Origin: Baylisascaris procyonis
Taxonomy: Eukaryota; Nematoda; Chromadorea; Rhabditida; Ascarididae
DNA length: 64,000 nucleotides
Assembly: GCA_037389465.1 (NCBI GenBank)
Contig: JAZARR010000250.1
Location: 4,890,001-4,954,000 of the forward strand
Direction: 5' to 3'
The notes below the pieces were generated by a model. That model saw only the letters and a list, made by a program, of their open reading frames with translations, was not told where the DNA came from and ran no database searches. Every line of letters starts with the position of its first letter. Position 1 is the stretch's first letter. This document shows positions 5,801-58,800 of this stretch, in pieces. A program made the position numbers and the translations under genes.

Positions 5801-8800
5801 TTTAATAACATTGGAACCTTCGGAGTGAATCGGTAGAAGACAATTGCCACGATAAGCAACGATGCGACCACTCCGGCAGCGCATCCGCCCGCATAGTAAA
5901 GCAGTGCGTTGCGCACCAGCGAAGCTGACATCACAAACAGCACAATACTTCCAAGGAACACGCCAAGACGTATGTAGTTCACATCTGCAACATCAAGTCT
6001 CTCTCCCCAATAACAGGCCTCTCCCTTTCTTAAATATATCTGTGTTTCTCTACCTACGAAATGTTACACGTCACATGCACTGTGCACGACTAGCAGTGGG
6101 TACGGCAACTGATTTCGTTATGCTTTCTTCTTCATCCACTAGTTACTCACTCTTTTTTCACGCGAAAAGAGGAACAAACCCTAAATGCTAAATGCAAAAC
6201 ACATCGATATGGCGACATGAAGGTAAGGTCTGTATAGAAAAAAGTGAGTGGAAATATTCGCAACTAAACACTGATACTTGGACTTCGTCATTAGCACATT
6301 AAAAGAAAGGAATTTCTGCCGCAAAGCCGCCAAGTATCAATAGGTCTAACCGAAGATAGAAACGACACCATCGAATAGTTACCAATATCCATGACCCAAG
6401 GAATTTTCTCTTCCGATGGGAAAAAATGCGTAAGGAATGTCCTATAATACCTGACATACCACCTAAATACTGTGGAGCTCATACTATCGCTTTTACAAAG
6501 CTTATGCAAATTCCTTCCAGCAACACTAATCGAAGATGTTATTTGCGAAGAAACACTGCTTCTACCAGAGGCACGATCCGATGTAATCTTGAAGGCGTGA
6601 AAATAGCATTAAATACCACGCATATAGTTAGCATATTCTAGCCGCACCATATAACAAGCATCGTGATAACTTATTCCCTATCTAATAAGCAGTCAGGTAA
6701 TATTTTAATGCAAAGAAATAATTTACCCCAGACACGCACTCTGACCGTATAGGGTTCATTGGTGAAAACGCCTATAACGGATCGACCAAACGGATTCAGA
6801 TGCTTAGAACGCATGATACTTGCGTAACGAAGCAATCCGAAGAGACGTTGATCATCACGGTAATGCTCCAACATCGAAGAACAGTTTTCCCCCTATAACC
6901 TTTGTTAATACCTCCAACACCTTTACTAATATTCAATAACGAAAACTTCAAACATACGGCAAATTTCATTTACGGTGAAGCATTACAAACCGAGATTACA
7001 TATGCTGGTAATATGGCCAATTTTTTAGATATAAGCTTATGTATTACACGTAATGGTGTAGTCACAAATGTATATGATAAAACCGAACAGTTTAACTTTC
7101 CAGTTAACAAATATACTCAATTGGATAGTAATATTCCTCTGTTTATGCACAAAAACCTCATAGTTTCCCAAATCTATAGATTTACTAAACTTTGCTCCAC
7201 TAAAGAAAATTTCATCAATAAGTGCAAAGACCTACTTAAAAATTATAGGGATAAAGGTCTCAGTAATTTCATTATGAAAAAGTTTATATACAAGGCATTG
7301 ATCAATAAACCGGAATTGATATATAAGTTCGCCTACCCAAATAGACAAAGTATTAGCAATTTACTTGATACAATTTTTTATGGGCCTTAGTATCTTACAC
7401 ATATTAGATTAAAGACAGATGTACTTCACGGAATATAAGGTCTGTTGCATCCTTATAAGAAAATACAACCCACATAATAACTTCATTTTATAATTACACT
7501 AATAGAATCTAAGTTATTTGTAGTGAACGACCGCACTACGATTCAATTTGCATATACTTCTATAGTCGTCTCCGTATTCAAAACCGTTCGCTGTTATGTA
7601 CGTTAACTCTGATATATTGATGGTTTTCCATGTTCTTCAGTTCAGTCAGCTGGTTAAGTCACCCGGTGCGGTTTAGTGCACCGTTTCGGTTAGACGACAG
7701 TAAATCTTCAAATTCGCCCGGCAACAACACGACGTACAAACAATGGAAGCCGATGGAAAAAGAAACGTAGCTTTGGCCTCACAAGGATCGGTCACTGAGA
7801 AAAATAGAAAACCGGAACGTGAAGGTGAGGTAGACATGTTTCTGGTAATCTACTTTTAACCGATAATATTAATCATGTTCACATTGACACCAACTATAGT
7901 TCCCTTTACGACTTCAGTTGTATTTCTTCATTCTACTCCTCGTCTGTTATGTCACTAGGTTTTCTTTTCTACTTCCATCTGTTCCCTTATTATGCTACCC
8001 TTTACATCGTGTTGTTTCACTAACATTACAACCTTTCATCAACTAACAGGGTTATGCGTATCGTTCTGATGATGGCCCACGCATAACTCAGGTGCACACG
8101 TAAACGAATAAGGGCCGAAACGTGTTCACCTATTTAATCTTTGTTCTTTTCTTAGAATATACTCTTTACAAATACGATCTATTTTTGCTATTTTCTTGTT
8201 TATTTTTATATTTTATTCTGCACTCATAGTTCTTAAATAATCTCATGTCAATTAACGGTGGATTTAAATAATATCATAACATCCATGTAACATTTCTACA
8301 TAACGAGATACTTCTGTATATATAATATAAGATTGAATTATTGTCTAAATATATATATTAGCCTATTGTGACATTCACAAAACAAAACACACAATCAAAC
8401 CTGAAAGGAGAGTAAGCAACAAATTCGCGACACTCTTGCAGATTTTCTTTTCCGAGAGATGATGCGCCCAAAGATTTTAATTTTATATGCCTTCCACAGA
8501 TAAAACACAAACCAGTGGAACAAAAGAACGTAAAAGCGCATATTTTTCAGTGGATAAAATAAGTGCGCTTTGCATTTGAAAACGATGAAATATGAGGGAG
8601 TGCTTATCTCTAGCTTAATGTCATCAAACTATCGATCAATCTTTTATTCCGCTTCGAGCAGGAGGGCTAAGCTAACTTCTACAAAGCAAATGAGTCTATG
8701 TGTCCAATCGTAATCGACTTCCAAAGTAAAAATAGGTCCACAAAATGGCTTTCCTTCTCTGTCCCGAACATAAAATCGAGATTTAAACAACAAAATTGCA

Positions 8801-12518: not shown

Positions 12519-13742
12519 AGTATTCGCTTTACAAATACTGAAAATTACTCTCAGAAAATCGACTCTAAATCTTCTTAGCTTTTCTGACGTTATCAGTGAT
12601 AACCAGCACGGCTTCCTTAAAGGAAAATCTACACTTACACAACTCATGACTTTCTATTGTGACTGGTACGAAGCCCTCAATAACGGTTTCCGAACAAATG
12701 TGGTGTATATTGATTTTGCCAAGGCTTTTAACTCGGTGACCCATCCGAAATTGTTGCTCAAGCTGAAAGCGTATGGAATAGATGGCGCTGTCCTAGCCTG
12801 GTTGAAAGATTTTTTACGCGGACGAAGCTTCATAGTGAAAATGCCTTGTCTTCGCTGCACTTTGTGCTCAACGGGTTGCCGCAGGGTAGCGTTCTGGGGC
12901 CTCTTCTATTTCTGCTTTATGTAAACGGTCTTCCAGAGGACTTATTAAGCTGCTGCAAGTTTTATGCTAATGATGTGAAAATAAACAGACCTACTATTGA
13001 GCCCCAACTCGATTATAACGCATTATGTCAGGACATGGTTTCATTAGAAAAATGGTCACAGCTATGGCAACTCGATAGATCCGCTGAAAAATGCTTTGAA
13101 ATTGCACCAAATTTCTTGACTGAATGTCTTCTGCGTTTATCTTTCTGCAAAGGAAGTAGTGAAGGATCTAGGTGTTTACGTGAGTTCCGACCTTAGCCGG
13201 CATAATCATTGTGTTGAAATTTCGCGGAGGGCTGCCCAAGTTGCGAATTGCATTCTGCGTGCCGTGCAGTACAGTTGCGTAGAAGATTACTGGAAAGCTT
13301 TCGTTGCTTACTGTCGCCCCATTTTGGAATATTGCAGTCAGGTTGGTCCCCACCCGCGAAAAGGACATCGAGATAATTGAGAGACCTCAACGGCGCTTCA
13401 CTAAGGCGGCTTTTAGAAAAGCTTTCCATCGACCGCTCCAGCCTAATCGTGAGCAGCGGCTTCGTATTTTTGACTTGAAACCTTTGTGGCATCGCAGAGC
13501 TTAGTTCTATTTATATTTATGTTTCAAAATCATTGAAGGTTTCTCAGGCATTCCGTTCGAGAGCATTTTCTCCTTTACAAAGTTTGCACTACGCTCGAGG
13601 CTTCACCCTCTACAAATCGAAAGGAAATCACTTAATCGAAGTGATGTGCTTAACTCCTTCGCTTATCGTGTTGTCCATTTGGAACTGTTCACCATGTGAT
13701 GTGGTAATGGCTGGTGATTTGTCATGCTTTAAGAGACGCTTG

Positions 13743-14198: not shown

Positions 14199-14426
14199 AC
14201 AGTAGTAGGTCAGAACATGGTAGATCAAATATTAGTGGTAGGTCAGACCATGGTAGATTAGACATTGATGGTAGGTCAGACCATGAAAGATGAAATGATA
14301 GTAGTAGGTTATATGCTCTACCATGGTTCTGACCTACCACTAATATTTGATTTACCATAGTCTGACCTGTCACTAATATTTGATCTACCACGATTTGACC
14401 TACAGCTAATGTTTGCTCTACCATGG
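14199..14426. repeat. inverted array of ~33-bp units (fold-back repeat)
   Basis: The left half (about 14199-14302) carries three direct copies of a unit containing GGTAGGTCAGACCATGGTAG, sometimes followed by ATCAAATATTAGT. The right half (about 14317-14426) carries three or more copies of the same unit in reverse complement (CTACCATGG...CTGACCTACC...AATATTTGAT). The whole can fold into a long imperfect hairpin. Units differ by scattered substitutions, so the array is not recent. It lies between the LINE remnant and a solo LTR. Confidence 0.88.
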
Positions 14427-14592
14427 TAATATTTCATCTACCATGAAAAATATTTTAAAACACACTTATAAACAATCTTTTCAAAGTTCCTATGACATAA
14501 AAATTTTGCACGAGATTTGGTGGATTGGAGGCATTGGCTGTAAGAGAGCATTATTCTTTCCGCAATACTGGGAAGAATAATTGTAAGGGGCA

Positions 14593-34708: not shown

Positions 34709-37700
34709 ATGGATCGGATGAGCTGTTATGCTACAATTCCATTTTCCCTCATTTGCGGGTAAGTTTTCGATTAATTTCCCTGAGAACAGTTCCGTAAGAA
34801 AATGCAACTATCAATTTCGACAGCCAATTTTCGCGCATTTTCTGACAGTCTAAAGTGTGGGGATATTTTTTTTCTTTCCTATTAACGCTTGTCATTTTCG
34901 TAGATTTTATATACTTTACTAATTTTTCTTTGTAAAATTTTTTTTTTCGTCGTAGCTGCTGTATTCATAAGTGTGCATGTACGGCGGATTTTCTACTTAT
35001 TGTGTTTTTCTCCTTCTGAGAAGTAAATGTTTCTTTAAAGGATAGATCATTGCAATGAAGCTTTCATTAATTAACACCGTTTTTTCGGTGAAGGGAGATG
35101 TACATGTATCATATGATTTGTTATTCAAAGGTCATCTTCACCTACGTGATAAAGAAACGTCCGTGCAAAACATTTACGCGTTCACGGTCGTTAAGGTGGT
35201 TGTTTGTTAATTATTCATTTCCATTGAGCGGTTTGAAATGTTATTTATACGATTGAATTGGGCTTGATTGAGATGGAAGGGGAGAGCACTTAGCACTAAT
35301 AACTTCCAGCAAAAGAATTTGGTACTCGATCATTCACTATGCCATTATGGGGGCGACGGTAACTATCGTTCTGCTTTGTTTGTCTATAGCGATATGATAC
35401 CGACTTGTGATCGCATTCTCTGATTAATCTTTCAAGAATCGCATGAATGCTTAGCAACGAGTTTGGTTATTATCATCTTTGAACTGAAATTTCTTGAGTT
35501 GTACTCATGCTGTGGAATCTGAAAGAGGGTGAGAACAATATGGGTGACAGTCATTGGAAAGCGTCATTTTGCGCAGCTAGTTGCTGCTGTATTCTTTTAT
35601 ACGGTATCCGTTTCGGCGATTTAATTGATGAAATGAACGAGGTAGGTGGATGAAGGTTGTTCAGCAATATTATATTGGCAATGCTATATTAGGCCCACGT
35701 AGTAAATGGCAAGAGCGCAATAGGACAGATGTGAATAGGAAGTTGACGACTCTCAGGGGGAAGGAAAGAAAGTGATAGACTTTGAGGCAAGATTGTGTTG
35801 CTGCTATCAGAACCTGCAGGTGTACAATTATGATCGTTGGCAAAAGAAGTGATGGTTGTTTTCGTTTCATTTTCAGATTAGTAATTGAAATGAGTGTTGG
35901 CTTTGTGACAGCATCAGGTAAAGGTGTGAAGGTGAGTGAGAGTGCACTCGAGAAGGCGAGAAAACTTTTGGAAACGATCGATAAGGAGGATGATTTTTAT
36001 GTTGGTGGTGATGCTGCTGTGCCATCGGTCGATATTTCAAGGTGATACAATTGTTTATTCTGCAAAAATTAGTGAAATACAATCAAAAGAGAAAGGTGAA
36101 ATGCGATTGAGAAAGAAATCGATCATTATTTATGATGGATGTTCAGTTCAACTTCTAATGTTTTCTTCTGCAATATCGAGCCAGTTTCATAGCTTTTATT
36201 TATCTTTCGCTCTTTGTCGTCTTATTTGTTGTTCCCACAAGTATTGATTGGTATTTGTTTTCACCTCAGGTGTGGGTTCATCAAAGCATAGTCGGTCGTT
36301 TACTAAGGTCTTATATCCATATTTTTCAATTACTGCCTGATCTGTCCGTTCATTAGAATATCCTGTTTAACGAACAAAGGTGCATACGGTGAGCTTAAGT
36401 CTGGCAGCAGTGTTGCAGTTCCCTAATCCTGTCTTGATTATTCATTTTTATTTATTTATTTTAACGTCCTGAAATGGGAAAACAAAAGTATGCGAGCATG
36501 AACAGCGGAAAAGATCAAAATGTTCGCAAAACTATATTCCTGACGAATGGGCATTCAATATGAAAGAGCAGCAGTAATGTTTAGGACGACTCAGCCACAA
36601 CTCAAAAGCTGAAGGAGTGGGTGCATTAACGATATCGGCGAGAAGCAGATTACAGGCTTGTATAACGCCAAACTGTAAACTGCAGAAGATTTTTTGTGCC
36701 GCAACATCCTTTGGCAAGCTAAAACTGATGCGCATATCAACTACGAAGAAGGGCACACTGAAATTTTCTGACAGCAGAATGCTGGAAAAGCCGAACACAA
36801 TTTTATAAGAAAGAATCAAGTCAAAGTTGAGCGTGCGATTTTCCAATGACTCCAAGTTAATGATTTTTGGCCTTCTGGTCTCCGGCTAATGTTATGAAGG
36901 TCCGGCAGCACACCGTCATCCTCCATAAAAACAATTGAGAACTAATGTGCAGGCATGTTATATGTTAACTGGCTCTCAGTAGCAAAGGAATCACCGCGGT
37001 CATTCCTAGGGCGACTCATAATTTCTGCCAATTTTAACGCAGTGAATTTATTAATGCTCAGAATACTGGTCAAACTGTTAATTCACCTAACTTATGGTGG
37101 ATAAGTGAGAGGGGAATATTTTTTCCTATGCAGACGTTGAAGGTACGATGATAGTAGTAGTCGTTCGCATGACCTTATTTTTTTGCATATATTTCACAAG
37201 CATTATGCAGAAAGCCTAGAAAGCGGTTATATATTTTGTCAATCCCGGTCGAGCCTTCAAGATGTTAACTCGAGTTATGCTGAGTTAACACAGCGTTAAA
37301 GGAACGAAAGGGATATATGTGCTTTCTGATTAGCAGATATTACTATGGGACTTAAAAAGGTACCAAAGTAGAGAGATTGAGAGATCTAGAGAGAAACTTA
37401 TTCCGTCCGACGCTTCCGCGCTCATAGTTTATCAGCGAAGATCGCAACCATGTTTAGATGTTGTGTGGAAAAGCCCATCTATGCATTTGAGTATCTTTCA
37501 CATCGCTTATGTTCATAGCCATAAAAAGGTCGGTAGTGAAGTACTGGAAACACTTGTCAAAGAATCAGATGTTGCTTTCTTGAGAATCAAAGCGGACATG
37601 CAGGGACTCATTGACAAGTTGTTGGGCGAGGAGGGGAAGAAGGGGTGATGGTCACTCTTCATCAAGTATATGTTCTTGACTGGATTATTTGTTTCAGTGC

Positions 37701-40700
37701 TTCATCGTTCTCGACCCCGATTAGGAGCGTTACGATTTCAGGGAGATTAGGCGCTATAAGACGCGCCACACCATTCCGCTCCCCGGCGTTCATAAGTCCA
37801 AAACCGCAAAATGGTTCATTGCTTTTTAATTGCTTTAATTTTCTTGTTTATATTTTAGAAGGGGATCATTTCTCTTTGTTCACGCCGGTGCATCTTAAAG
37901 AACGCTTAAATCAGTCATAATTATGTTTGGAAGGATTTTTCATTTTTCGAATTTTTTTACAAGACTCGAGGAACCGAATTCTGAAGTGAATAGCTAAGCG
38001 CATCTATGGTATGAATCACTTCAGGGCAACTCGATTTTCAGCATTTCACTTTTTTGTATTCGGAGGGAGGATGAAAATGATTGTCAAATTGAATTCAATT
38101 ATCCAGTAAAAAAGACATACACATAACTCATTTTATACAAATCACATTACGATTTTGAAATCGAATTATTCCACTAGTTTTTATATACATTCTCTGCATG
38201 AAATATTTGCAAATGTTATTTTATTTGTTATTTCAAGTTCTTTAATTGACATTAATGGGTTGGGAAGAAATCACATGGAAATTGATCGATAAGCCTGCAG
38301 CGAAATTCTTTTAATTGGCTTTGTCAGTGCTGTGAGCTTTCTGTGCACTATTACCTACGTCTCTGAAATTTACTTTATTTTTTCCCTACTGTACTACTTT
38401 ATAAGCATTTTCACGCAACGAGAATTTTTTTATATATCGTCTTCGCGCAGCATTTTCTTTATTTATTCAACTGGAAATTTAAAACACCTTTAAAATTATT
38501 TTTGCATTCTCTTCATGGTCTTACATTTATGTTTTGGTCAGTTGTTATAGATGGTGTTTTAGAAGAAAATATGGGGTCGACCCTTGTCGAGGTGGAAAAC
38601 GCAGAACATTTGGACAGTGTCGTTCCAGATGGTGTGACACCACAACGTGTATCGCTGCTTTCTGCATTGAGTACACCAGTAACGCCTTCTACTCCTAGTA
38701 CTTTTTCCTACTTCTTTTGATGTATAAAATAGTGGAACACTTTAATAACCTTAATTGCAACCCCAGTTATCTATTCAAAGTGCTAAGAGCTGTAGTTGAG
38801 ATTTCGCTCACCACAAATATTGGCGTCACCAACGTAATGAAAATTTTGTTTGACATTTTAGCATCTCGTTCCGTAATCATTAGCAATTTCATAATTTGTG
38901 ATGAGGGTGTCCTCAGAAAATAATTTCATAGGAATGCGGGGAGGAAGGGGGAGGGAGCTTCAGGAAAAATTCATATAAGAAGACATTGACGCCGAATATG
39001 CTACAAATTGACGCATTTTGAGGCTTCGTGAATTTGCGAAACAAACTCAGAAACCATCCAAATAACTTTTAAAGTTGTTCGCGAGGGGTCTCCTAAATTT
39101 AATGCGATAAATTCGAGAGGACTTTGTCGAAATTCGAGAGGACAACTAGAGCTTCCACTTAATCCCTTTGGCTTTGCCGTTGACTTATGAAGTTAATTCA
39201 ATTGATGCTACACCTACAACAATTTCTGACAAGGGTTCAGCTGTAGGTTTAGTGCTTTCTTATAAAGAGATGGTTGCTTTCTATAACCTCGAAAGATATT
39301 CATGGGGGTTCCTACAACATTACTTCATGAACATTCTGTTGCTCTTTATGAGTGTTTTATATCTAGTTGAAGTGAGCATGGTATTGGCCAACTATTTGCT
39401 TCGACGACGATTATGATGAAAACAATTACTGAAGTAGACGACCAAAGCACTTGTAAAGGCTTTGGATGGAATCTGAGTAAAAAAAGACGGTGAATTGGGA
39501 AAAGGGACTAAAGGACAAAGCCAAAAGAGTATCATTAAATTGGCGAGCGAATGCAAGTGATCTGTCAAATAAAAGTAAGGAAAGGATGCTGCGAGACACA
39601 GAGTTGATCGTGAATGCTAACGGAAGAAAAGGAGTAAGCAATGAGGAGAATGCAAAGGGGAGTGTAAGCGTCATATGGAAGTGTAGAGTTCAAAAACATA
39701 GAATAAGGACGCTATAATTGAACGGAAATATACTTTCGATGAGGTTTCTCTTTTAGACAGCAGTGGAGAGGAACGCCGTAATATAACACCAATAAAACTG
39801 CTTACACCGTATTGTAAAAATTGGCGACTTTGTATTAAGGTTGTTTGCATCGAAGAGGTTAGTTGATAAAAATTTGCGTTTTTTTTCACTGCTTCCTTTT
39901 TTTTCAACTCATTGGATTAAACTCATCAAACATGATGGAAGCTAACGGGATCTTGATCTGAATAATAAAGTATCTCATGTAAACTGATGTGATCTTATAG
40001 GCAATTAAACGAGTAGCCTTTAGCTGAAATCTTTGTAAGTGTCAGTCTGTTTGAAAGGCTTATTGCTGATTCAATATACAAATATATGCCAGCAAAAAGA
40101 TGCAGCTTATTTCAATTCGCGTTTAATGATTACAGCCAAAATCATCTATTGGCATTCTACGCAAAACTTTCGAGTTGAGCGGTCGATCTGAAGAAAAATT
40201 ATAATTTAGCTGCTATATGGTCGAAAAGTAATATTTATCTTATAGGTAATTTTTATGAGCGGTCGGGTCAGTTAAAATATGAATTTTCGTTTTACATATT
40301 TTGCTGTTTGTTGAAGAGTTTTCTAGCCATTGGAGTGTATTATGCCTGCGTCTTTGGCACATCTTTCTATTCTATTTGCCTAGAAGATTTCTTGACTTGG
40401 CTTTGGGTTAGTGGGGCACCAATGTAATTGTCTCAAGCAGAAGTATAATGCTTGTGCGAGCACATTTCATTTGAATTCTAATTAAATAAATGTTGAGATG
40501 AGGCAATTCCGTGGAACCAGCCTATTCTCGTTTTCGGGTGTTGATGACGATGGAGTCGAAATTCGGATTTGTGCTTTCAATCACCTTGCACAGAAAGTGG
40601 CCGCACTTATTAAGCTTGATCAGGTATTGTATTCTTGTGGAAATACTTGTAGATCAATCGATATGTTTCAAACTCTGCAAGCACATAATGGTAGGCAAGT

Positions 40701-43700
40701 ATAGTTTCGAATATGTGTTTGGTGGGATTATTCTGCAGAAAAGTTTTATTCGTAACACAGTATTTTAAAATATTTTCATTATATTTATTGACATCGCTTA
40801 GTTATTGCACAGTTATAGCACAATCCGGCATTTAGTTCAATAATTGCACAAATTATGGCGCAACTCTTCGATGGTTATGAAGTTGCCTATTTATAACATA
40901 TTCGTTCTGTGCACTTAGTAATTGCGTAATGATATCACAACTATGCAGTATAGTAACATAAGTTCATAAATTTTTCATTGCATTGCATTAATTTGAAGAG
41001 ATTCTTTGATCGTATCAATTCTTTGTCTTATTAAATTGCATAAATGAATTTGCATTGATTATCCTGTTAACTCATATTTGATGAATGTTTTTAATGGCAA
41101 GTTTTTAGATGTACTATATAAGAAGAGCATCAGTGAAGCCGGCAATGAAACGATTCAAACGTAATCAATATGATATGGAAGTTATCGTTCGAGATGAAAC
41201 CGAGGTTTGTCTTGCATTGTTACTCTTTGAATGCAAAATTCTAATGCGATTAGGGATAATCGTTCACTCTTTGCAAAGTAGCAATTGCTATGACTTGTAC
41301 AGCTATTTGACTTATATGCTTTCATATTTTCATATCGTTTGATTAATTTTAATCGTGATCAATCGCTTTCGTTTGATGTTTCATTGAAATCGAAGAGAGA
41401 AATGCGAATAGTAGAAATTATTCACGAAGAATTCTTATTTATTTATTTATGTTATCTTTCAGATAATCGAATGTATTGATCGCGCGGAAATTTCATCGCC
41501 GAAAATTCGTTGCGATTTTGTTCGCATTAGAAATTTGCCTAAGTTTACCAATTCGGAAGTTGGTAAGGTTATTCTCTCAAATTGCTGATCGTTTTCTTTT
41601 TTAGAGCATTATTTTCATTCGAGCAACTACGATGTAATATGTAGTTAAATGAGCATTTTTGCTGAATTTCTTATTTTTACTAAAACGTCTCATATTTTCA
41701 CTAAAAATTTTCTCAATCCCACCAAAACTTTTCTCTGTACTACACTGAAGTGGATGAAAAATAGTTGGGAATAGAATAATACCCTCAATTTGAATAATAC
41801 TACTCATTGATTGATGTATTTCTCATAATAGTGATATGTATTTTTATTGTATATATGGAGCAAGCGTGTAAGAATGCCATTCATAATGTGACGATATGAT
41901 ATGCACTAGTGAGTGATCACTTACGAAAGGGAGTATGTTGGAGGAATGATTTATAAAAAAATACGAGAGGGAACTTTTTGAAAAGCAGTAGCACTGAGTG
42001 CATAGAAATGTTTCCATTGACATTATAAATACAAGCATTGCACATTAAACTCAATGATATGTTTTATTCGGAAACTCTCAACAAATATTCTCGTTGTTGG
42101 CGAATGTGCTTTGGTTGTCGAATTGCTTCTCATCCTGGTTTGTCTTATGAATACGAACATTTAACTTATTGAGAGATTATGTTGACTTGTGAAAGCAGTA
42201 ATATTAGTCGTTGATTTTTGCATTCTCTCCGGCGTATTAGTCTTCATTGTGATAAGTCACTTATCAGCTAGTCATATAAAAGCTGTCAGTTAATCATATC
42301 AAGCATTCTAGATATGGTGGGAGTGGTGCGCGAAGTGGGTGAAGTAAAGCAATTGACTGGCAAGATGGGTGAGGCACTCATCAAGAGGGATATCCAAATT
42401 GTTGATGACTCGTTGCGCTCGGTAACCGCCACCTTATGGGGTGAACGTGCCAAGAACTTTGATGCATCTTCCGAAGTGACGATACTCGTTTTTAAGCGCG
42501 TTCTTGTACGAACTTATCACGGTATTTTGCTTTGATTGTTGCTTCGTTGTTGAAAAATTGTCTATATGTTTTTTCCAACTTTTTTTGTCTACGTTGTACC
42601 CTCCAGTCACTGAAGAAATGAAGTTCTGTTATTTTAATGTTTTGGTTCGGTATATGGTTGAATAAGTTGGAAAGCACATTAGAAAAGCTAGCACAACAGA
42701 CGCTTTTGCAGCCGTGTTCATGGTCAGTCATTCTCGCACAATTTCAGAAAATTATAAAGCAAGCCCAATAATGTATTGTTTGTTTAACAGTTCTGTACAT
42801 TTGCAATATCTTCTGTAAATTATTCGTTTTTCCCACTTAATCGCTGTAAAACGTATGCAGATTTGTAGTCACTTTTGAATGTATATAATTCTTCATAATT
42901 TGTTTTGAAAAGGGTCGATCAGCTCCCGCAATTCGCTTTTGAAAAAGTTTACTTAGAGTCTGTCTTGTGGTGAAGGTTACTGCTATAAAATTCCATGAAT
43001 AAAGCCTCAGTGGTTGGTGGCTTACAGTCAAAATGCAGACAAACAGATACTCTCCACTCAATTCATAGGTAGGCGTCGCCGTAATTTGTCATGCAATTTA
43101 AACTTGAGCAATTGGAAACTATGAGGCCAATTGGAAATTTTCTGATCGGCCGGGTTAACCTATTTAATTTGTTGTTATTCAAAAAGTTATTATCATTCAA
43201 ATTGACCTCTTTGGACTTACCATAAATCAGCTTCCATTTTTCCCCGCATGTTTATTCCTTTTCCATGCAAGAATTGCTGAGAATATATCGGCTAATAGTA
43301 GAGAAATAAATAATCGTTGAAATTCGAATGAGCAATATTCTATTTGCAATAATATTCTATTTAGTATAATACGATAAACGTTCACGTTTAGGTTCGATAT
43401 CGTTATCGACGACCAGTTCAACAATATTGGATGTGAATGTGGATTTGCCAGAAGTCAAAGCTTTGCAACGATGGTATGAAGAGAATAGAAACGCTTCATT
43501 TTCAGCACTCTCTACCGAACTTATTCTCTCTTGTATGTTTCCCTACAATGATCGATTTTTTGTCGTTTTTTTCTTCAAATTCGTTTTTTAATTCTATTCA
43601 ATAATAGTGCTGAATGTTTTTAAGTACGAATGACCAATATGTTTAGTGGATTTATTCAGTCTACTTCAGTTATTTCTTGTTCTGAATGCTTTATTTTATT

Positions 43701-46217
43701 ATATTTGATTCATCAGTCAGTCTATATTGGTGCCTGTCCTGAGGTACGTTCGCGATTGCTAAAGCTTAATAACTGCATTTAAACCATTCGTAGCCTAATA
43801 TCATAAAAGAAGAAGAAACCCATAAAGGCTGTGCATATGATTACCATATAAGTAAGTTTCTAACAAACCATTCAAGTTTTTCGATGAATAACCTGCTGTC
43901 ATATTCATTTGTTAGCAATCTATTCGGATTTGTTATTTTAATAAGTCGTTAAATTAAAAAAATCTTGCCTTTCATAGCAAGTTCATTTTTTATGAGCGGG
44001 GAGGGGAGAGGAGTAAGGGAACGAACGACTTGTTGATTTGCATCTGTTCAATCTAAGTGGTATTTTATTCGATTTTTTTGCTAGGCAGCATACCAGCTGG
44101 AAAACATTCAATAATTTCCTTGATGAGCTCATTATTGAATTGTCTCCATAATCTTCAGCCAGCGAACATAAATGGATCGGAGAGGTGAAAGTTTTGAATA
44201 AGATGATCTACTTTAATGTAACGGCAATGATAATGAATATCAACGTGGACAACGCTGTTTACAAGGTATTTTTTCGATTTATTCTCTACGAATTGCTGTT
44301 GCTTTGCGGTGATTATACACTTCGAAACCATTATTATTTTCAATTGTTGATATGGGGATCAACGATGTAGAGTGTACCCGCATTCTGAAGCTACGATGAG
44401 TTACTACCATTGTAGTCACTTAGACTTGAAGTTTCCTTCGTTATTGCTTTATTTGTCATTTCGTGGGGTTCATTGAGAAAATGGTTCAACGTCTTGTGCG
44501 AGTGATTAAAGACTTAGAGACAGGAATACAAAAACCTAAATGTGAATACCTACCTCATCCCGATAGCTTTGACACCCGCACATTTTTTAGAAATATGCTC
44601 ATTCGATGAGCATGCCCATTAAAAGCACTCTTTTTTAAAAGCACGAAGTGGGAGCAATTTTATAAACTCGCGATCCGAGGTGGTAAGATTTAATTGAACC
44701 CAATTTAGGAGCTGTTAGTTCAAGTGCAGTCGAGTGCATTTGTACCCATGACAACATTTCAAAATAGAACGTATTGTCATACGTCGGTGTATAGCTTTTG
44801 AATGGAGCGTACGCGAGGTGCTGCTGCATGTTCCATCGTAATGCGCAACAAGCACCGCACGTTCCTTTTGAGCTAAAGAAAACCGTCGCGTATTCCTTCT
44901 TTCATAAACAAGAGTCCCTTTATTTATCCACTTTTTCCATGCACTCTACATCTACTGCAGAATATAGTTTTTTTAATATTTCTTTAGTGCATACATCAAA
45001 AATAAGCTTGTTTCAATACTGTAGCTTTATTTTACCTTTATTACGCTGTTATTTTAGGGTTGTGTAAACGAGGGTTGTCGAAAGAAATTGCTCGAAGTGG
45101 ATGGCACATTGCATTGTCCAAAATGTGGCAACGCATCCGACGACTATAAATATTTCTACACTCTTTCGGTTTGCTCCTTTTTGATTATATAAAGCCTCGT
45201 TAGTGAATATTCTTATTTCTTTAGTTGGTGATGTTAAAGAAAGCATAGTTTGCTTCGGACAGTTTCATATTTGTGGTATTTTAGGCCAAAAAGTACCGGG
45301 AAAGCTGGAGAATTCAATAGTAATATGCGACTACTCCTGGATTTGGTGAAAGCTTTACTGAAGATACGGAGTTATGCACCGAGGTTGAGAAGTTATCCAA
45401 AATGGCAGAATAATGTTTAGCAGAATAGATCAAATTTTAACCTTTTCGAATGTGGCGGCAAGCCTAGACGTAAAAAGGAATTGTTTTCGTTGCCCAACCA
45501 ATTAGGAAAAATGACATTGCAAAATGTTTCTTAATTTTCAGAATTATTTATGAATTTTTAGTATTTTTCTCGTAGGTTACATCGCTGTGGATAATCGAAA
45601 TACAGTTTGGGATCGTAAATCCTATACTGGGACATTTTCTGTTCGATCAGCTGTTTTTAAATTCTAAACTCGCATCATATCTCAGAGCAGTCAGTGGTTT
45701 CACACTTTGCTTTAACTCGCCTAAGGGGCATCACGTTTGGGGCAGTTTGAGATGCGAGTGTCGCAGTAGCCAAAGTTCGTTTCAAAATGCATTTATTTAA
45801 AAAAAGTTGAGCATCTAAACGACGAAGAAAATTTCTCGAAAAGCGATATTTCAGATGGAATTATGCGATATGACTGGAACGCATTGGGTGAGCGTATTTG
45901 ATGACTCGGCTGAGAAATTACTGGGCGAATCGGCCGATGAGATCGCCAAAACTCGTAACTATAACTATGACACATATTGCGCCCACTTTAGAGCATTACT
46001 TTTTAAAACTTACGCATTCCGAGTGGTTGCACGTCGTTGCGATAACGATTCAAGTATTTCTCGAGAAAGGATGCAGCAAAAAGTGGGGACCTCAGGTTCG
46101 GGTTCGAGCTCAACTCATGTGCAGCACAAAATGCGTTGGTCTGTTCTTGATTTGATGCCAGTGAATTATGATGCATATATTCAATTCTTGGAACGTTCTG
46201 TGCAACGTTTATCTTAA
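34709..46217 (+). CDS. BRC repeat fused to replication protein A large subunit (RPA1-like)
   Basis: Predicted ssDNA-binding protein with a built-in RAD-51-binding motif. Fourteen exons join in one open frame of 652 codons: 34709-34758, 35877-36041, 37519-37644, 37698-37813, 38551-38697, 39757-39857, 40498-40623, 41109-41204, 41463-41562, 42312-42521, 43392-43532, 44159-44265, 45058-45168, 45855-46217. Residues 25-52 are a BRC repeat (GFVTASGKGVKVSESALEKA). Residues 114-201 are Ser/Thr-Pro rich (ATPFRSPAF, TPVTPSTP). Residues about 205-315 are RPA DBD-A (TPIKLLTPY, TSLFSFSGVDDDG), 343-430 DBD-B (VTATLWGER, with the ssDNA-stacking Trp at 385), and 445-652 DBD-C with a zinc ribbon (Cys 497, 502, 515, 518). 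The RPA70N (DBD-F) domain found at the N-terminus of usual RPA1 is missing. Exon 39757, where DBD-A begins, has no ATG and joins exon 38551 in phase 1, which argues against two genes. AATAAA lies at 46469. Confidence 0.87.
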
Positions 46218-55800: not shown

Positions 55801-58800
55801 GTATTCGATCAAGTAAAGGTTCAATCCAACGTTCGTTAACCTCACAGTGACTATCGAGGAATATGATCACCTCTCCACCGGCACGTTCAGCACCAAACAT
55901 CTTCGCACGGATCAATCCCTCATTGTGTTCGGTTCTCAACATTTTCACCAACTCCGATGACCAATTCTCTTTTCGATATTCCCGCAGTGTGGCATCTGAT
56001 GAGTTGTCTAAAAAATTTTAGACGAACAGTACTTTAAGAGATCATCTCGGATGGGATTGCAGTCAGCATTCGCTACGGATGCTTTAGTCACAAGCCGCGA
56101 AATGAGTGGAAAGAAAATTGTATGATGGTCATCGTATCAGTGGTTTCGCTAAAATCTCTAGTGAACCTCAGCACCTATATGGAGGAAAAACAAATATAGT
56201 CTGAAATAGCAATCAACTGACCATATGCAGGCTACTGGTAGAAGTTTCTGAATGAACCAGAGCGGATTCTGCACAAGATCTGCGCAACATACCGAATCAG
56301 TAAACGAGTAATGGTTACATCAAACCAGCATTAAACAACATTTAATTTTGGAGACAAGGAATGCTGCATTTCTGAATTTTAAATTAACGACATCAGATTC
56401 TTTGAAAGGAAGGTTATGGAAGAGAACCTTCATTAAGTGGGGTACTTCTGGCAGCTCTTCTTGCCAAATCAGGTTTTGAATTGAAAGAATGGCGTTGGGG
56501 GGGGGGGGGAAAGGTTCGATTCGAAAATATGAGGTGAATTGAAATATACCAAGATCACTGCAGTCGTCGATAAGAAGGATTTCGTGAATGAGATTCAGTG
56601 GCGTTCTGTCGAGGATGCTGTTCACCATACGGATTAAGGCCGACGGTGCTTCGTTGTAGTAGCAAATAATGATACTAGATGATGGCAGATCTTCTGCGTA
56701 ACTTTCATTCTGGCACCTCAAATTTGAAACACATCGCCATTCTCATACAAACTGGGAAATCTACGAGAATCTACGAGACCTGCTTTGTAAGAACCACAAT
56801 GAAATCATAGAGGAAATCCAAAAAGTAGAAATGTCACTGGATATACGCTCTTCTCCTCCTTTCCCTTACAACGTTACAACCTAAAACAGGTCATCGCAAC
56901 AGTACTCACAAGCAGAGACTACGATACTTTTTATATGTCGCGAGATAACCATAGCATTATCACATAAAACGATTGCCGAATCATACTCATATTCAACAGA
57001 CATTAATTCGAAACGTCTGACGCTGCAAAACTAATAAACTACAAAAACGATGGGGATTCGAGGACGATCTTCCCTAATACAGTTAAAAGGGAAGCAGACG
57101 AGGAGATAGCGACTAATTTGCCAGCCAATCAATCAAGAATGGCGCATATGATGGGATATTGAATGAAGGAGCGCTTTTCAATGTAATTTTAAAGAGGATC
57201 ACCGAATCGACTAACAATGAACAATAATCCATACAATACAGCGGGATAAATAACTGTTTATTGATCAAGCATGATTAAATTTCACTTGTGAAGAGAGTTG
57301 TTGTAAAGGTGTTTTTGCTTGCAATGAGGAAAAAATTAAGTGATAAGCGGTAGAAACATGTGCGATTAGTAGAGTAATGTGAATTTTTGGTATATATTCA
57401 TTTTTCGGCTCGCAATTTGGAAATCAACGTAATTTACACCAAAGTAATCTACAGAAGTGAACCAATGGAAATCTGACTCGAAGAGTATTACTTTTCTCTG
57501 CGAGATTATGGCACTTACGCTCAAAACTAATTAATCTACACTTTTAGCAATAATAGGCTGTCGGTAAGATGGATATAATGCAAGCAATCGCATCAGTTTC
57601 TAAGTGCAACAAAAAGCTTCATCGAACAAAGACCATTTGCCAACTTATACGCGTACATCCACAAACAAATATCTCACAATAAGAAACGATATCTCTAAAT
57701 TTATCAATAAACTAAAAGAATCTTGAGCTTTAATTTGCAAATTTTCAACAGTGGTGTCACATCTCCTCTAAGATGCTTATCGCGAATCAAATAGGTTTAT
57801 ACATTACGATACGATGATAGGGCATTAAGCACAGTGGACGAGTGAGAGCATCCAACTCAAGCGGTAATGCAACAAAACAGGAAGTATTGTAGATTTCAGC
57901 ATACTTCGTGCACGAACAATTACCATCGAACGATCGATTAACGATGAGATATTTCGTTGAGAGATATTTGAGTATATGAAACCTATAAAAAACAATAGGT
58001 GTGACTAAATAAGGAACTTACAGGTAATGTCTCGAATCAGGTATTCGCCTTCGAGGTCCAATTCGCTTGCTTAGAAGCTCATTAAATACATATTTATCGA
58101 AGCCTTCATCGTGCATTTTCTGAAATGACTGTTTGCAAGAGTAACGGGTATACAGCTGGTTGTTGATGAACAACATGTTAATGGCATCCCTCCATAATAT
58201 TCTCTTATAAATGCAAAACAAATTTAGAGCAAGATTCAATTGAATAAGTGAGGGATGAAGAACAAATAATTGCATATTTGATAGAAGATGAGGTGAAGTT
58301 AGTGGCATATTAAAGGTGGAAAGATTGTAAGATTGAAACTCGCATATATTCTCCATTAAAAGGAACTGATTGAGGAGAGAACATGTTAGAAAGTTACCTT
58401 AGTTTTCTTAAAGTTTTGTTTTTTGCAATGAATTTATAAAAAAATGATTCATACTCATATATACACTCTAATAACATTTTGCCAATACACATACAATCCA
58501 TCACATTATGATATCTATCCCTTTTCCCGGGCTTTCCAGATCAACGCCCCTCTCAATCATCACTTCGAAATTCTCGTTAATGAATGAAAGCATATCGATG
58601 AAGGATTCTTGACGTGTAGCAAATTGCTTTTAAATTGACTTTCAAAGAAAAACCATCACAAAAAACAATCATTAACCGACCAAATTTCGGCAGGGTGCTG
58701 GCTTTATTTTCATAATCATGCAGTTCTATCAACTTAAGAAGAAATGGCACATTATGTTTCACTTATATTTGATTATAATTGCTGAAGGACATATTACAAA

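What the first reader, a model, noticed from the sequence alone, without database searches (positions are those of the whole stretch)
34709..46217. Natural BRC-repeat to RPA1 fusion protein
Seen: fourteen exons join without a frame break. They link a BRCA2-type BRC repeat (FVTASGK core at residues 26-32) through a Ser/Thr-Pro linker to RPA1 DBD-A, DBD-B and zinc-ribbon DBD-C. Known: BRC repeats bind RAD51; RPA coats ssDNA and must be replaced by RAD51 in recombination; BRCA2 proteins do this with their own OB folds. Inference: this protein may bring RAD-51 directly onto ssDNA held by RPA, merging the BRCA2 mediator with its substrate-coating partner. From memory, engineered BRC-RPA fusions partly suppressed BRCA2 deficiency in mammalian cells. 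I know of no natural example.
Basis: partly seen in the sequence, partly recalled or inferred. Interest (0 to 1): 0.93.

Follow-up and report, generated by a model that had tools for sequence, protein, structure and literature searches.

The report
Natural BRCA2-RPA hybrid in parasitic worms
Ascaris-like roundworms carry, besides an ordinary RPA1 gene, a second gene whose protein joins one BRCA2-type repeat (predicted to grip RAD-51) to the three DNA-binding domains of RPA1, so it likely loads RAD-51 onto single-stranded DNA as laboratory-built BRC-RPA hybrids are thought to do.

Summary
The fusion is real, but its gene model needs trimming. One BRC repeat (Pfam E 9e-10) is followed by a Ser/Thr-Pro linker and RPA70 DBD-A, DBD-B, zinc DBD-C and C-terminal helix, without RPA70N. 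Eighteen database records from 16 named Spirurina species (ascarids, an oxyurid, Thelazia, filariae) join BRC and RPA domains; one is truncated before DBD-C. The window's own 273-Mb genome holds a separate conventional RPA1 with RPA70N, 4.6 Mb away, and no other BRC repeat above the Pfam cut-off. Six of 8 introns in the RPA part coincide with that RPA1's; the fusion clade is sister to nematode RPA1. So this is a duplicated RPA1 carrying a BRC repeat, likely the worms' BRC-2 (BRCA2), nucleating RAD-51 on ssDNA. Engineered BRC-RPA fusions correct BRCA2-deficient mammalian cells, and C. elegans BRC-2 is reported to have an RPA-like OB fold. Function is inferred; RAD-51 and DNA binding are untested, and C. 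elegans BRC-2 could not be compared. Origin before the Spirurina is weakly favoured (AU p 0.019; 0.075 after dropping six rows).

The parts
35877..35889 (+). 13-nt stretch between a strong 3' splice site (tttcattttcag|) and the start codon; likely 5' leader, perhaps a trans-splice acceptor
   Evidence: splice context; the trans-splicing reading is inference
   Evidence: 14 of 18 relatives begin at this Met; matched by 18 of 18
35899..35970 (+). BRC repeat, residues 4-27, GFVTASGKGVKVSESALEKARKLL
   Evidence: Pfam PF00634 E 9.1e-10; only BRC hit above cut-off in the genome
37698..37813 (+). coding exon 2: Ser/Thr-Pro linker
   Evidence: matches A. suum, Toxocara and Parascaris at E 6e-12 or better; other relatives weakly or not
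38563..38697 (+). coding exon 3: Ser/Thr-Pro linker (acceptor corrected from 38542)
   Evidence: A. suum, Parascaris, Toxocara
39757..39857 (+). coding exon 4: start of RPA1 DBD-A
40498..40623 (+). coding exon 5: DBD-A
41109..41204 (+). coding exon 6: DBD-A; both boundaries shared with own RPA1
41463..41562 (+). coding exon 7: DBD-A/DBD-B
42312..42521 (+). coding exon 8: DBD-B with ssDNA-contact Trp (residue 318) and Tyr 344
   Evidence: PF16900
43392..43532 (+). coding exon 9: end of DBD-B; both boundaries shared with own RPA1
44159..44265 (+). coding exon 10: start of DBD-C; both boundaries shared
45058..45168 (+). coding exon 11: zinc ribbon of DBD-C, Cys 430, 435, 448, 451; both boundaries shared
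45855..46217 (+). coding exon 12: rest of DBD-C, C-terminal helix, stop
46167..46214 (+). C-terminal helix matching the RPA70 helix of the trimerization core
   Evidence: predicted on the Toxocara relative; aligned, placed

Best explanation
This gene encodes a natural fusion of one BRC repeat with the three DNA-binding domains of RPA1, with relatives in 16 named Spirurina nematode species, and the protein likely acts as these worms' BRCA2 (BRC-2): the BRC repeat is predicted to hold RAD-51 while the RPA1-derived domains would bind single-stranded DNA and so nucleate RAD-51 filaments there. Shown: one chain with BRC, linker, DBD-A, DBD-B, zinc DBD-C and C-terminal helix; no RPA70N; a separate conventional RPA1 in the same genome; no other BRC repeat above the Pfam cut-off; shared introns and tree place the RPA part as a duplicate of nematode RPA1. 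[quoted passage not shown] elegans BRC-2.
Against: No binding, expression or genetic data were available. C. elegans BRC-2 was not retrieved, so orthology rests on the BRC repeat, its uniqueness in the genome and print. The T. brucei engineered BRC-RPA fusion restored RAD51 foci but not homologous integration (PMC2408642 passages). BRC peptides can also inhibit RAD51 filaments (recalled). Whole-genome scans read exon by exon and missed a split RPA70N, so they could miss a divergent or split BRC repeat.
Confidence: 0.78

Rival explanations
1. It is a brake or store rather than a loader: it parks RAD-51 on ssDNA or keeps it off, for example at forks, for single-strand annealing or for protection against excess recombination.
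For: C. elegans BRC-2 also promotes annealing of RPA-coated strands, and one of its RAD-51 contacts inhibits RAD-51 ATP hydrolysis (PMC8121103 passages). RADX, an OB-fold RAD51 regulator (recalled role), appears among fold matches (8u5y).
Confidence: 0.12
2. The fusion is simply the RPA1 of these worms, so their whole RPA pool carries a BRC repeat.
For: Databases give 16 of 18 records an RPA-type name; DBD-A/B/C, zinc site and C-terminal helix are kept.
Against: A second RPA1 with RPA70N lies in the same genome, and 14 of the 16 named species also have a conventional RPA1 record. The conventional gene is the more conserved in 9 of 9 species pairs compared.
Confidence: 0.03
3. Gene-model artefact: a BRC gene and a truncated RPA1 copy lie side by side.
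For: 1,059-nt intron between 38697 and 39757 with a weak donor (CCTA|gtactt); no transcript evidence from a call.
Against: Relatives from ascarids, an oxyurid, Thelazia and filariae have the two parts in one predicted protein; no in-frame Met precedes DBD-A in its open frame.
Confidence: 0.02
4. Rival on origin: the RPA1 duplicate arose inside the Spirurina and replaced an older BRC-2, so C. elegans BRC-2 is a separate invention.
For: All 18 named fusion records are from Spirurina. The AU test does not reject a Spirurina-only origin once six rows are dropped (p 0.075).
Against: With all rows the Spirurina-only origin is rejected (p 0.019); the best trees put the fusion outside the nematode RPA1 clade (99/97; 98/96, with a warning of long branches meeting). 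Print reports an RPA-like OB fold in C. elegans BRC-2.
Confidence: 0.3

Closest known systems
Caenorhabditis elegans BRC-2 (CeBRC-2)
   Same: Single BRC repeat plus ssDNA-binding OB fold (PMC8121103, passage); no tower, and its OB fold is reported nearer to RPA than to BRCA2 (PMC3240595, passage); [quoted passage not shown]
   Different: 394 aa with one OB fold as reported (PMC8121103, passage); the Spirurina protein has all three RPA1 DBDs with zinc ribbon and C-terminal helix. Sequences were not compared here.
Engineered BRC-RPA fusions (mammalian, Ustilago, Trypanosoma)
   Same: BRC repeat(s) joined to the RPA large subunit; one BRC is enough in the mammalian version (PMC3240595, PMC2408642, passages).
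   Different: Laboratory constructs; the worm protein is natural, conserved, and lacks RPA70N.
Human BRCA2 / Ustilago Brh2
   Same: BRC repeat(s) and tandem OB folds in one protein.
   Different: OB folds here are RPA70-type by sequence, structure match and introns; no BRCA2 helical or OB1 profile match; one BRC repeat (Brh2 also has one, PMC8121103 passage).
RPA1 (RPA70)
   Same: DBD-A, DBD-B, zinc DBD-C and C-terminal helix; six introns in identical positions with the own RPA1.
   Different: A BRC repeat and linker stand where RPA70N would be; faster evolving; exists beside a conventional RPA1.

Membership tests
BRCA2 / BRC-2 (RAD51 mediator) | At least one BRC repeat with the FxxA (F-x-T-A-S-G-K) core | tested here: met
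   Pfam PF00634 above cut-off; F5, T7, A8, S9, G10, K11 (585-aa numbering) invariant over 18 rows
BRCA2 / BRC-2 (RAD51 mediator) | OB-fold domains in the same chain | tested here: met
   ssDNA binding itself not tested
BRCA2 / BRC-2 (RAD51 mediator) | Only BRC-bearing gene of the genome (expected for a sole BRCA2) | tested here: met
   one hit above cut-off; two weak hits below it, one of them in a repetitive stretch, the other not followed; split or divergent repeats could be missed
BRCA2 / BRC-2 (RAD51 mediator) | Physical binding to RAD-51 | not testable with these tools
   needs protein
Classical BRCA2 DBD (helical-OB1-OB2-tower-OB3) | Matches to BRCA2 helical and OB1 profiles | tested here: not met
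   none among Pfam hits of the protein at E up to 1; genome scans for PF09103 and PF09169 also empty but without a positive control
Classical BRCA2 DBD (helical-OB1-OB2-tower-OB3) | DSS1 binding | not testable with these tools
   a DSS1 gene exists in the genome
RPA1 (RPA70) | DBD-A and DBD-B tandem with ssDNA aromatics | tested here: met
   residue labels recalled, columns from the alignment; the F269 column is Ile in the fusions but Ile/Val in the other RPA1 rows too
RPA1 (RPA70) | DBD-C with four-cysteine zinc ribbon | tested here: met
   12 of 13 rows; the 13th record is truncated
RPA1 (RPA70) | C-terminal helix of the trimerization core | tested here: met
   predicted helix 571-585 of the Toxocara relative; aligned to 1l1o_C through residue 616; pairing with RPA2 not tested
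RPA1 (RPA70) | RPA70N domain (PF04057) | tested here: not met
   no hit at E up to 1 in the fusion; present in the own conventional RPA1, E 6.6e-10

The most novel reading that the evidence does not exclude
Nematode BRC-2 as a whole is not a shrunken BRCA2 but a duplicated RPA1 that swapped RPA70N for a BRC repeat early in chromadorean nematodes. The Spirurina keep the full form; C. elegans BRC-2 is its worn-down descendant. The full form still joins RPA2 through its C-terminal helix, giving these worms a second RPA complex that carries its own RAD-51 loader.
Probability: 0.35. Interest if true: 0.9.

Novelty: new variant of a known kind. Interest (0 to 1): 0.8.

Why it matters
Engineered BRC-RPA fusions were a main argument that the core job of BRCA2 is to bring RAD51 to ssDNA (PMC3240595 passages). 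Here evolution has made and kept much the same construct, with a single BRC repeat, across ascarids, an oxyurid, Thelazia and filariae. It gives a natural, compact (521-620 aa in the untruncated records) mediator for biochemistry, offers a testable origin for the RPA-like OB fold reported for C. elegans BRC-2, and suggests that BRCA2-type mediators can be rebuilt from RPA1. It also warns that 16 of 18 database records of this protein bear RPA-type names although a conventional RPA1 exists beside it in most of these worms.

Tried and rejected
Fusion as the only RPA1: rejected. Second BRC gene: the C195 hit (17.8 bits, E 1.05) lies in a repetitive frame; the C144 hit (14.8 bits) was not followed. 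RPA70N by whole-genome profile gave only one place under the cut-off, on C78; the RPA70N of the own RPA1 is split over exons and was found only with the Parascaris relative as guide, which shows that these exon-by-exon scans miss split domains. RPA3 (PF08661), BRCA2 OB1 and helical scans were empty without a positive control, so they show no absence. PF16900 and PF08784 scans did not complete. C. elegans BRC-2 was sought with a mixed profile and not retrieved. Papers on C. elegans BRC-2 (PMC1069622) and on the mammalian BRC-RPA fusion (PMC1482653) are not held; their content is taken from passages of later papers. No paper describing this natural fusion showed in the listings; the library holds open-licence papers only, and I did not read every listed paper. 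The tree used 13 of 19 available fusion sequences (12 records and the own one), 21 RPA1 and 9 others; the second tree left out six rows (long, fairly long or truncated) and kept columns filled in 60% instead of 50% of rows; its tool warned that long branches meet there. A script to splice the own RPA1 automatically went wrong; splice sites were then read by eye.
Full report
What is there. The product has Pfam BRCA2 repeat PF00634 (E 3.4e-9; 9.1e-10 on the N-terminal 204 residues), REPA_OB_2 (3.5e-20) and Rep_fac-A_C (5.4e-29) in one chain. By sequence it matches human RPA70 over DBD-A to DBD-C (E 1.6e-55), and its N-terminus weakly matches the human BRC4 peptide of 1n0w (E 0.059).

Correcting the model. 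Exons 1 and 3 are not borne out. Against these two stretches alone, the ascarid records P0001-P0003 give nothing below E 0.6 in exon 3 or E 0.4 in exon 1, whereas they match the neighbouring exons at E 6e-12 or better. P0006, P0011 and P0013 give short hits to exon 3 (12-20 residues, E 0.003-0.045 for a target of 176 bases), three of the four at the C-terminal end of their chains and one inside the BRC region; I take them as chance. Ascaris suum F1KWX5 (P0001) reads on upstream of 35890 in the genomic sequence (35810-35889), so its first residues may be leader sequence. Skipping exon 3 keeps the frame and gives VDISSASSFSTP, where A. suum has VDFSSASSFSTP. Moving the next acceptor from 38542 to 38563 gives PQNEEN, as in A. 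suum. The corrected protein (12 coding exons, 35890-46217, 585 aa) aligns to A. suum over its whole length, 530 of 586 identical with one gap. 14 of 18 relatives begin at the Met encoded at 35890; P0001, P0003, P0015 and P0017 have 3 to 50 residues before it. I recall that F1K... entries of A. suum come from assembled mRNA; no call shows it.

Relatives. The first protein search gave 17 records with both BRC and RPA domains from 15 named species, plus 3 ordinary RPA1. One of the 17, the Parascaris record P0003, stops before DBD-C. A profile search gave the same 17 plus Syphacia muris P0082, an oxyurid, and 19 short unnamed pieces (P0082 domains confirmed). All 16 species fall in suborder Spirurina: Ascaridomorpha, Oxyuridomorpha and Spiruromorpha. 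These searches score only the roughly 8,000 candidates that share most words, so absence from other nematodes is not shown. Ten of the 18 records are named RPA 70 kDa DNA-binding subunit, six have other RPA-type names and two are named BRCA2 repeat protein.

A separate RPA1 exists. A whole-genome scan (own genome: 272.8 Mb, 293 contigs; the window is C248:4890001-4954000) found the Rep_fac-A_C domain at two genes, this one and C248 near 343 kb. The second gene was read with insect, fish and Parascaris RPA1 as guides. It encodes RPA70N (E 6.6e-10) and all three DBDs. A query built from it gave 61 relatives, none with PF00634 among its listed domains, the best 86% identical (Parascaris univalens P0021). 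Of the 16 species with the fusion, 14 also show a conventional RPA1 record there; 11 of those 14 carry PF04057, and the other three (P0022, P0034, P0047) are shorter records. A search of the genome with the fusion protein found its own exons and one weak hit at that RPA1. One BRC repeat in the genome passes the Pfam cut-off, and it is this one.

Origin. In the RPA part the fusion has 8 introns and the own RPA1 has 10; 6 coincide in position and phase (P 7.6e-13 for random placement; RPA1 splice sites read by eye). In a tree of 13 fusions, 21 nematode RPA1 and 9 others over 429 columns, the fusions are one clade (100/100), nematode RPA1 another (99/97), and the two are sisters against the rest (100/100) when rooted on the rest (the same groups in the quick tree). 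So the RPA part is best read as a copy of nematode RPA1. Whether the copy predates the Spirurina is less sure: forcing the fusions together with Spirurina RPA1 gives AU p 0.019 with all rows but 0.075 without six rows, where the tool also warned of long branches meeting. The two genes lie 4.6 Mb apart on one contig. The fusion is less conserved than RPA1 in 9 of 9 species pairs compared, for example 49.4% against 66.4% with Loa.

How it likely works. BRC repeats bind RAD51 and RPA DBDs bind ssDNA; both are established for the families, not for this protein. From passages only: BRC-RPA fusions correct the recombination defect of BRCA2-deficient cells, a single BRC repeat suffices there while it barely works on the BRCA2 DBD, and the OB fold of C. 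[quoted passage not shown] The equivalent T. brucei fusion restored RAD51 foci and VSG switching but not homologous integration (PMC2408642). C. [quoted passage not shown] RAD51-type genes and DSS1 are present in this genome. The best reading is a mediator that docks on ssDNA through RPA-type OB folds and delivers RAD-51 from the BRC arm on a flexible linker. Lacking RPA70N, it would not recruit the checkpoint partners known to bind that domain (recalled). Whether it pairs with RPA2 is open: C. elegans RPA-1 pairs with RPA-2 or RPA-4 and no RPA-3 is known there (PMC7913698 passages), and none was found here, without a positive control.

Verdict. It is not the worms' RPA1 but a second, BRC-bearing copy that is most likely their BRC-2. 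Databases hold it mostly under RPA names, and no paper describing it showed in nine searches of an open-licence library.

Noticed in passing
G000 C170:4489835-4492357 (+) and C219:4958810-4961754 (-): Two separate multi-exon RAD51-family genes, plus one weak single hit at C219:4619938. C. elegans is reported to lack DMC1 (PMC8121103 passage), so one of these could be a DMC1 or a second RAD-51.
   Followed up: no
window 12520-13196 (+): Two overlapping frames, each with part of a reverse transcriptase (PF00078, E 1.8e-8 and 3.4e-8): a frame-broken retroelement fragment.
   Followed up: no
window 56320-56742 (-), perhaps to 59293: Exon of a glycosyl transferase family 2 gene (PF00535, E 6.6e-6); the wording CYYNEAPSALIRMVNSIL recalls polypeptide GalNAc transferases (recalled, no call).
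   Followed up: no
window 14201-14427: Two adjoining 33-nt tandem arrays whose units are near reverse complements of each other, so together they form an inverted repeat.
   Followed up: no
window 6899-7390 (+): 163-codon open frame without a Pfam match at E up to 0.01.
   Followed up: no
P0001-P0017, P0082: Ten of 18 records of the fusion are named RPA 70 kDa DNA-binding subunit, six have other RPA-type names, two are named BRCA2 repeat protein; automatic transfer of RPA1 function to them is likely wrong.
   Followed up: yes
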